A stretch of 64,000 nt of DNA from Methanococcoides burtonii DSM 6242 (GTDB taxonomy: Archaea; Halobacteriota; Methanosarcinia; Methanosarcinales; Methanosarcinaceae), in NCBI RefSeq assembly GCF_000013725.1, contig NC_007955.1, positions 1,209,579 through 1,273,578 of the forward strand, read 5' to 3'. Within the stretch, counting starts at the first letter, position 1; the number at the start of each line of letters is the position of its first letter. The notes under the pieces are model-generated. The model searched no databases, was not told the DNA's origin, and saw only the letters and a program-made list of their open reading frames with translations. Made by a program: the position numbers and the translations under genes. Below are positions 15,275 to 17,062 of this stretch, one piece after another.

Positions 15275-16639
15275 TTATTGATGTCTTATTTTATTACCTA
15301 AAATAAATCCAAGTAATCCGATCAATAATATGCTTATTATTGTTTGTAATAGACTAATAAACTGAATTCGATTAGGTACATTTGTCAATTCTTCGGGATT
15401 AATCGTTACCATTCTTTGAAAACTTATCCATAATGCCTGGTAAATGGATGTTAAGGATAGCGCAAAGTAATAGATGATGGCAAAAAGTAGGAATGTAGCA
15501 AATAAAGTTCGTGTTATTCTTGTCAAACTTTCACCATATTTACATAAAATATCGGCAAGATAACTCAAAAATATTTGGAACGAAATCTTAAATTTTGTAT
15601 AATATGATATATAATTTGAGTTTTTTTTCTTTATCTCTAATTCATTTTTCAATCGTTCGCGCTCAATCCTTTTGGCTTGCACATAAGCCCAATTGGAATC
15701 TTGCATATAACCTTTAGTTAGCCAAAACCCACTTAGATATCTAAAGATATCTTCTGCATCTGTAAATCTGTCATTTAAAGATTCTTCTGGCTTCCAATCT
15801 CTGCCTTTTATACCACTCTCTTTTGAATATTCCAGGAAGTCTCTGTAAGAATCTTCATCTTGCTGTAGGATTCTTTCATCTTTAAGGTTTTCTTTTCTTA
15901 TAGTTGCACCTTCGCTAAAATACGTATAATGCAAGCTACTATTGCTTATTTTACAATATCGAAAAACGACTACACCCTTGAAAAGAGTTCTGTAAAAGTC
16001 ACAATATTTAATAGTTGAGTCTTGAAATGTTGCCAGATTAATATCAGAATATTTAAAATCACTCCATGAAATCTTAGCCTTACGAAATCTAGATTCAATT
16101 AGTTTACATCTTCTAAAATTAATATTTTTAAGTATGGATAAATCAAAATTACAGTTTATTAATAGTGCTTTTTCAAATGTAACATCTTCAAGTTGAGCAT
16201 TTTTAAAAACAACATCATATATTTGTGATGGGCTATAGTTACATTCTTTGATATGTGTGCCCTCAAATGATACATTTTCAAGGTATATATCTTTAAATGC
16301 AACATGTTTAATACTCGATAGAGTAAAATTGCAGTCCTATATATCTGCGTTTTCAAACGTTACATTTTCAAGTTGAGCATCTCTAAATGTTACATTTTTA
16401 ATCTTTGATGAATCAAGATTGCAGTTTTTTATAATTGCATTGTCAAATGTTACATTTTCAAGTTGAGCGCCTTTGAATGTAACATTATCAAGTATTCTAC
16501 CTTGCTGACCTTCCTTAGAAAAGATTACATTTTTAATAATGTAATCTGAGAAATCACACCCATTTACATCTGTTTCGGACTAATCTTTATTTTCGATGCG
16601 TTTAGTCTCTAAAGACTTTTTTTCACAATCACAATCCAA
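15275..16639 (-). CDS. Pentapeptide-repeat protein with 2-TM channel-like end and two in-frame TAG codons
   Basis: Reading the minus strand, one frame stays open from TTG 16639 to TAA 15275 except for TAG at codon 20 (16580-16582) and codon 101 (16337-16339). Between and after them it encodes about 200 residues of pentapeptide repeats, such as GAQLENVTFDNAIIKNCNL, then NAQLEDVTFEKALLINCNF. A hydrophilic linker (NLKDERILQQDEDSY) follows, then two membrane segments (TLFATFLLFAIIYYFALSL and a C-terminal one). The layout is that of pentapeptide/two-TM ion-channel proteins, but no TxGYG filter is seen. Neither stretch ended by a TAG has an ATG or GTG start. Either both TAGs are pyrrolysine or the gene is broken. 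From the second TAG on, the nearest usable start is TTG 15934, which would give a 219-residue C-terminal piece. Confidence 0.6.
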
Positions 16640-17062
16640 ATAAACTTGAATGTTTATTTCAATACCCCCAATTATCTATAAGATTCTAACTATTTAAAAA
16701 TCTCGCTATGGTCTAGTGATTCTTTATAAATTGGAATTTTCAGCATCCTGATGTTTGTTGATTTAAAAACCGAAAACAGGTTTTGTGACATTAATTTAAG
16801 ATATTCAGTGGGGTATATGGCTTCAGAATAGTAAGGAAAATATGAGTTGTTTTAGGATAACTTCCTGATGCATAATCTTATTTTTTGAGGCACTTTATAT
16901 AAATTCAATTCAAATTTAAATAACTAATGCATTTGAAAAACTGCCAAAACACCACAGTTATCCACGGTACTGCCAAAACCATCCTTCCTTTCTCAGTACT
17001 TAACCACGCTTATATAAGGCTGTGATAATGTAGCAGTACTGACAATTAATGGCGGTGATTCA
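16640..17062. promoter_or_regulatory. Intergenic region with promoter of the regulator/ferredoxin/oxidoreductase genes
   Basis: A TATA box (ttatataa, 17010-17017) is placed to start transcription near 17040, ahead of ATG 17063 with a ggcggtgat ribosome site. Around it the motif gtactg or its complement recurs: ggtactgccaaaacc (about 16968), tcagtactt (about 16993), and gcagtactgac (about 17033), plus ctgccaaaac at about 16942. These look like operator half-sites, perhaps for the regulator encoded next. Left of 16900 I see nothing more. Confidence 0.45.

What the first reader, a model, noticed from the sequence alone, without database searches (positions are those of the whole stretch)
15275..16639. 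Two in-frame TAG codons in a pentapeptide-repeat/channel-like gene: candidate non-methyltransferase pyrrolysine protein
The minus-strand frame is open for about 455 codons except for TAG at 16580-16582 and TAG at 16337-16339. Repeat structure is continuous across both. Both interruptions are TAG although TAA and TGA are the stops used by every confident gene here. The 80 codons between them contain no ATG, GTG or TTG, so that segment could only be made by read-through. At the second TAG, two sibling repeats carry Lys (IIKNCN, HIKECN), and pyrrolysine is a lysine derivative. Pyrrolysine outside methyltransferases has been reported (for example Thg1 in Methanosarcina). The plain alternative is a pseudogene.
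Basis: partly seen in the sequence, partly recalled or inferred. Interest (0 to 1): 0.8.

Follow-up and report, generated by a model that had tools for sequence, protein, structure and literature searches.

The report
Membrane protein gene with two pyrrolysine codons
A methane-making archaeon carries a gene for a repeat-built membrane protein, probably an ion channel, that is interrupted by two UAG 'stop' codons; a sister species keeps both, so the cell most likely reads them as the rare amino acid pyrrolysine rather than stopping.

Summary
The genome (2,575,032 bp, matching Methanococcoides burtonii from memory) carries pylT-S-B-C-D. In 463 kb sampled, TAG ends only 7 of 274 gene-like ORFs, and at least three of those are read through (mtbB, mttB, and a histidyl-tRNA synthetase where TAG replaces a Lys codon of the congeners). 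A sister species (G003, 83% aa identity) keeps both TAGs at the same codons (26 and 107), with no TAA, TGA or frameshift. Neutral drift predicts about 5 TAA/TGA (P about 0.005); dN/dS is 0.26. A third species (G004, about 50%) has ATG, eight codons, then TAG near site 1. At site 2, neighbouring repeats carry Lys on the outward face. Best reading: a translated gene with two pyrrolysines, encoding a pentapeptide-repeat membrane protein weakly resembling the HalA channel of Hailong defence. Open points: no ATG/GTG/TTG precedes TAG1 in the sister species (an AUA at ideal Shine-Dalgarno spacing is the candidate start), and no peptide data. Pyrrolysine outside methyltransferases is already known, so this is a new, unusually well-conserved member of a known kind.

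The parts
15275..16657 (-). Full proposed coding sequence, 460 codons plus TAA, from a candidate AUA start (16657-16655); two internal TAGs
   Evidence: only stops are TAG at codons 26 and 107 and TAA at 461; same TAG codons in G003. The start codon is inferred.
16580..16582 (-). TAG1, in-frame amber codon (codon 26), proposed pyrrolysine
   Evidence: same codon in G003; TAG within about 3 codons of this place in G004
16337..16339 (-). TAG2, in-frame amber codon (codon 107), proposed pyrrolysine at the outward i+1 position of a pentapeptide
   Evidence: same codon in G003; sibling repeats have Lys, Lys, Ile in the window species and Lys, Lys, Glu, Ile in G003
16665..16669 (-). Shine-Dalgarno-like GGGGG, 7 nt before ATA 16657-16655
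   Evidence: 7 nt is the commonest GGAGG-to-ATG spacing in sampled genes of this genome; identical in G003
16637..16639 (-). TTG, the only ATG/GTG/TTG upstream of TAG1; alternative start in this species only
   Evidence: the codon is TCA in G003
16691..16698 (-). TTTAAATA, TATA-box-like promoter element
   Evidence: read in the sequence; lies in a 97%-identical block in G003. Function inferred.
15901..16470 (-). Pentapeptide-repeat beta-helix region, including four 30-residue super-repeats (approximate bounds)
   Evidence: Pfam PF13599, PF13576 and PF00805; super-repeat table; predicted beta strands with block-mean pLDDT about 80-90 over most of residues 50-160
15278..15710 (-). C-terminal helical and membrane region with HalA-like segment (approximate bounds)
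   Evidence: NCBIfam NF051894 over residues 311-410, E 6.3e-7 on the C-terminal ORF alone, below the curated cut-off; long helices in the model, at low confidence

Best explanation
This is a living gene for a pentapeptide-repeat, C-terminally membrane-anchored protein (channel-like, HalA-like build), and both internal UAG codons are read as pyrrolysine by the cell's own tRNA-Pyl(CUA) and PylS. Translation most likely starts at an AUA codon placed 7 nt after GGGGG, or in this species possibly at TTG 16639, passes UAG at codon 26 in a short N-terminal segment, passes UAG at codon 107 on the outward face of the beta-helix, and ends at TAA. The residues probably arose by amber codons replacing codons such as Lys AAG and are tolerated rather than catalytic, because UAG is essentially a sense codon in this organism. 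Shown: intact pyl genes, conservation of both TAGs, purifying selection on the frame, rarity of TAG as a terminator. Inferred: pyrrolysine at these positions, the start codon, and the channel function.
For: pylS, pylB, pylC and pylD score far above cut-offs and tRNA-Pyl(CUA) lies beside pylS. G003 keeps both TAGs at codons 26 and 107, with no TAA or TGA and only in-frame indels of 90 and 9 nt. Neutral simulation of 173 substitutions gives a mean of 5.1 TAA/TGA, P(0)=0.0046. dN/dS is 0.26 over the frame. TAG terminates 7 of 274 coding-like ORFs in 463 kb, of which mtbB, mttB and hisS clearly continue in frame, and 2 of 136 and 2 of 135 in the two relatives. HisRS has TAG where the nine congeners that could be read have Lys AAG or AAA. 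G004 has ATG, 8 codons, TAG, then an open frame. Lys occupies the site-2 column in sibling repeats. Family members without TAG exist in another genus (G061) and on a Bacteroidales MAG contig, so the protein family is real.
Against: G003 has no ATG, GTG or TTG in frame before TAG1, so expression needs a non-canonical start there. Between the TAGs dN/dS is 0.57 with only 6 synonymous changes, so selection on protein sequence in that stretch alone is not proven; the whole 5' part is conserved at nucleotide level. G004's TAG is about 3 codons off in the gap-free alignment. Only three species carry TAG-bearing copies. No peptide, ribosome-profiling or RNA data were available.
Confidence: 0.8

Rival explanations
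1. Pseudogene inherited by both species: start codon lost, two nonsense mutations fixed in the common ancestor, sequence now drifting.
For: No canonical start before TAG1 in G003; eight other genomes of the genus lack the gene, so it is dispensable; nonsynonymous and synonymous rates are not clearly different between the TAGs.
Against: Zero TAA/TGA and zero frameshifts after 173 substitutions (P about 0.005); dN/dS 0.21-0.26 after TAG2; 90-nt and 9-nt in-frame indels; G004 also has an otherwise open frame with TAG only.
Confidence: 0.1
2. Only the part after TAG2 is translated, from an internal start; the upstream repeats are a dead remnant or leader.
For: Selection is clearest after TAG2. Internal TTG at 15934 in the window species and GTG at codon 129 in G003 could start shorter proteins.
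Against: Those internal starts are at different places in the two species, and the one in the window species would delete the repeat domain; most of the upstream part is more conserved (mostly 85-98% per 60-nt bin) than the intergenic DNA (75-85%); repeats are in frame and in register across TAG2.
Confidence: 0.07
3. The TAGs are read through by another amino acid or mechanism, for example near-cognate suppression or a dedicated RNA element after TAG1.
For: A 10-bp hairpin lies about 30 nt downstream of TAG1 and the surrounding 250 nt are unusually conserved, including synonymous sites (dS 0.13 against 0.40-0.45, Fisher P 0.0009).
Against: A tRNA-Pyl(CUA) and PylS are encoded; folding z-scores near both TAGs are only -1.6 and -1.5; the genome tolerates TAG in other genes.
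Confidence: 0.03

Closest known systems
Thg1 (tRNA-His guanylyltransferase) of Methanosarcina acetivorans
   Different: TAG reported in that species only; here two TAGs, both conserved in a second species
Methylamine methyltransferases MtmB, MtbB, MttB
   Same: In-frame TAG conserved between species, same decoding machinery; mtbB and mttB with TAG are in this genome
   Different: Those have one functional pyrrolysine in a methyltransferase; here two, in a short N-terminal segment and on a beta-helix surface, with no catalytic role apparent
Archaeal 'Pyl code' in which all TAG codons are sense (Kivenson et al., Science 2025; from memory, not held in the library)
   Same: TAG almost absent as terminator and widely sense, as found here
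   Different: If M. burtonii and this gene are already listed there, the present case is a known example; I could not check
HalA, channel effector of the Hailong anti-phage system (NF051894, PDB 9nyi)
   Same: Pentapeptide repeats and a membrane region; C-terminal segment hits the HalA profile at E 6.3e-7
   Different: 66.8 bits against a cut-off of 250 for the whole protein; no HalB in the genome

Membership tests
Pyrrolysine-containing protein | Host encodes tRNA-Pyl(CUA), PylS and PylBCD | tested here: met
Pyrrolysine-containing protein | In-frame TAG followed by homologous, selected coding sequence | tested here: met
Pyrrolysine-containing protein | TAG conserved in orthologues | tested here: met
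   Both sites in G003; site 1 approximately in G004; absent in G061 and the Bacteroidales copy
Pyrrolysine-containing protein | Pyrrolysine seen in the protein by mass spectrometry | not testable with these tools
   no proteome data available
TAG-as-sense ('Pyl code') genome | TAG scarcely used as terminator | tested here: met
   7 of 274 coding-like ORFs in 463 kb, at least 3 of these read through; 18% of the genome sampled
Pentapeptide-repeat protein (Pfam PF13599/PF00805) | Profile match above gathering score | tested here: met
   121.1 bits against 38 for PF13599
HalA (NF051894) | Score above curated cut-off | tested here: not met
   66.8 against 250 bits
HalA (NF051894) | Partner HalB encoded | tested here: not met
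   no match to NF051895 at E 0.001 in the genome
Pseudogene | Mixed stops or frameshifts, relaxed selection | tested here: not met
   between the TAGs alone the test is inconclusive

The most novel reading that the evidence does not exclude
The early, conserved TAG near the N-terminus is a control point: the HalA-like membrane protein, possibly a defence effector, is made in full only when charged tRNA-Pyl is available, so its dose follows methylamine metabolism or is held down by partial termination.
Probability: 0.08. Interest if true: 0.85.

Novelty: new member of a known kind. Interest (0 to 1): 0.52.

Why it matters
Well-documented pyrrolysine outside methylamine methyltransferases is sparse, and the 2010 review read here lists a single physically observed case. 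A gene with two amber codons, both kept after roughly 17% protein divergence, is a clean test of whether UAG is an ordinary sense codon in these archaea and whether pyrrolysine is tolerated or selected at non-catalytic surfaces. It also warns that annotation pipelines would call such genes pseudogenes. The same genome shows the likely route in HisRS: Lys AAG in the nearest relatives, TAG here.

Tried and rejected
Recoding hairpin (PYLIS-like): folds near both TAGs are not significant (z -1.6 and -1.5). Scans of genome contigs with the protein alone, of viral contigs and of plasmids found no relatives; the alignment found one Bacteroidales MAG copy. Phylum-wide search of 393 genomes added none beyond the four archaea. 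PADLOC gave no defence-family match for the archaeal proteins. The 2025 'Pyl code' paper and the Hailong paper are not in the library. My first count of G003 codons used a frame off by one and was redone.

Full report
WHAT IS THERE. The minus-strand frame 15275-16639 is open for 455 codons except for TAG at 16580-16582 and 16337-16339, and ends in TAA. Between the two TAGs there is no ATG, GTG or TTG. The protein read through both TAGs is a pentapeptide-repeat protein (Pfam PF13599, E 2e-35) with a C-terminal helical, hydrophobic region. The repeats form 30-residue super-repeats, and TAG2 falls at the i+1, outward-facing place of the pentapeptide ADIXD; the same column in the other super-repeats is Lys (AAA), Lys (AAA) and Ile. 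AlphaFold on the single sequence gives beta strands running through this place, with block-mean pLDDT about 80-90 over most of residues 50-160, and Foldseek finds pentapeptide beta-helices such as QnrB1 and MfpA.

THE GENOME. The window lies in a single-contig genome of 2,575,032 bases. It encodes PylS, PylB, PylC and PylD, all far above curated cut-offs, in the order S, B, C, D, with tRNA-Pyl(CUA) beside pylS. In 463 kb sampled, including the window, TAG ends 7 of 274 coding-like ORFs, against 136 TGA and 131 TAA. Two of the seven are the known TAG-containing methyltransferases for dimethylamine and trimethylamine. A third is histidyl-tRNA synthetase, whose TAG stands where the nine congeners that could be read have Lys AAG or AAA. 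A fourth is pylB, which the review PMC2933860 gives as ending in TAG in this species. The other three extend by only 6-7 codons, so reading their TAG as sense would cost little. The related genomes G003 and G004 show 2 of 136 and 2 of 135.

CONSERVATION. G003, of the same genus, has the orthologue at 82-83% amino acid identity and carries TAG at exactly the same two codons, 26 and 107 counted from the shared ATA. Its frame has no TAA or TGA. The two indels between the species within the frame are 90 nt (one whole super-repeat) and 9 nt, whereas the upstream intergenic DNA has single-base indels. If the frame were drifting, the 173 observed substitutions should have made about five TAA or TGA codons; none was seen, P about 0.005. 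dN/dS is 0.26 overall and 0.21-0.26 after TAG2. G004, at about 50% identity, begins with ATG, eight codons, then TAG and an open frame to TGA; its TAG lies about three codons from site 1 in a gap-free alignment, so homology of the codon is likely but not certain, and it lacks the repeats that hold site 2. G061, in another genus, and a Bacteroidales MAG contig have family members without any TAG.

WEAK POINTS. Before TAG1 the window species has one TTG (16639), which is TCA in G003, and G003 has no ATG, GTG or TTG until codon 129. Both species share GGGGGTATTGAAATAAAC; the ATA stands 7 nt after GGGGG, which is the commonest spacing between GGAGG and ATG in this genome. I take this AUA as the likely start; AUA is among the start codons that NCBI table 11 allows (own knowledge). 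This step is inference. Second, the first 110 codons and the promoter are conserved even at synonymous sites (dS about 0.13 against 0.40-0.45 downstream, Fisher P 0.0009), so selection on the protein cannot be separated from selection on the nucleic acid there, and dN/dS of 0.57 between the TAGs is not proof. A 10-bp hairpin follows TAG1 by about 30 nt, but the folding energy of the region is not unusual. Why this stretch is so conserved is unexplained.

HOW IT MOST LIKELY WORKS. UAG is essentially a sense codon in this organism, so no special element is needed: charged tRNA-Pyl enters at both codons and the ribosome goes on to TAA. The result is a protein of about 460 residues with one pyrrolysine in a short N-terminal segment and one on the outside of a beta-helix, followed by a membrane region. 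The C-terminal ORF taken alone hits HalA, the channel effector of the Hailong anti-phage system (NF051894, E 6.3e-7), and HalA (PDB 9nyi) also has a pentapeptide stretch. But the score is far below the HalA cut-off and the genome has no HalB. I therefore call it HalA-like in build, not a HalA. The orthologue of G004 lies within about 4 kb of a type I restriction subunit R relative and a TcmP relative, which fits a defence setting but shows nothing.

LYS TO PYL. At site 2 the sibling repeats carry Lys, and in HisRS the congeners carry Lys, with AAG in the most similar copies. Both fit an AAG to TAG change that is tolerated because the side chain still points outward as a long lysine derivative. 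This resembles the neutral evolution proposed for Thg1 (cited in PMC2933860).

COMPARISON AND NOVELTY. Pyrrolysine outside methyltransferases has precedents: Thg1, observed physically, plus transposase and TetR candidates (PMC2933860, PMC3639795). From memory, Kivenson and colleagues (Science 2025) report archaea in which all TAG codons are pyrrolysine; the paper is not in the library, and I could not check whether M. burtonii or this gene is listed. So this is a new member of a known kind, unusual for carrying two amber codons that are both conserved between species.

Noticed in passing
L040:6713-7945 (-), genome C1:2476713-2477945: The histidyl-tRNA synthetase gene has an in-frame TAG 33 codons before its TAA; nine congeners that could be read have Lys AAG or AAA there. 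A likely further non-methyltransferase pyrrolysine protein.
   Followed up: partly
L056:11458-16533 (-); L067:14466-15701 (+); L066:11820-12791 (+): Coding-like ORFs in G003 and G004 that end in TAG but continue in frame for 164, 85 and 119 coding-like codons.
   Followed up: no
window 16411-16710: Block 87-98% identical to G003 (mostly 93-98%) including synonymous sites, covering promoter, TAG1 and a 10-bp hairpin; more conserved than intergenic DNA or most of the gene.
   Followed up: partly
window 15278-15710 (-): C-terminal part resembles the HalA channel of the Hailong anti-phage system although no HalB is encoded.
   Followed up: partly
L044:2166-3134: Intact 322-aa relative without TAG on a Bacteroidales MAG contig, suggesting the family crosses domains.
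   Followed up: partly
L074 (G006:C111:4563-5390): A protein in a congener matches HalA over positions 74-338 of the profile (E 7.9e-9), below the cut-off.
   Followed up: no
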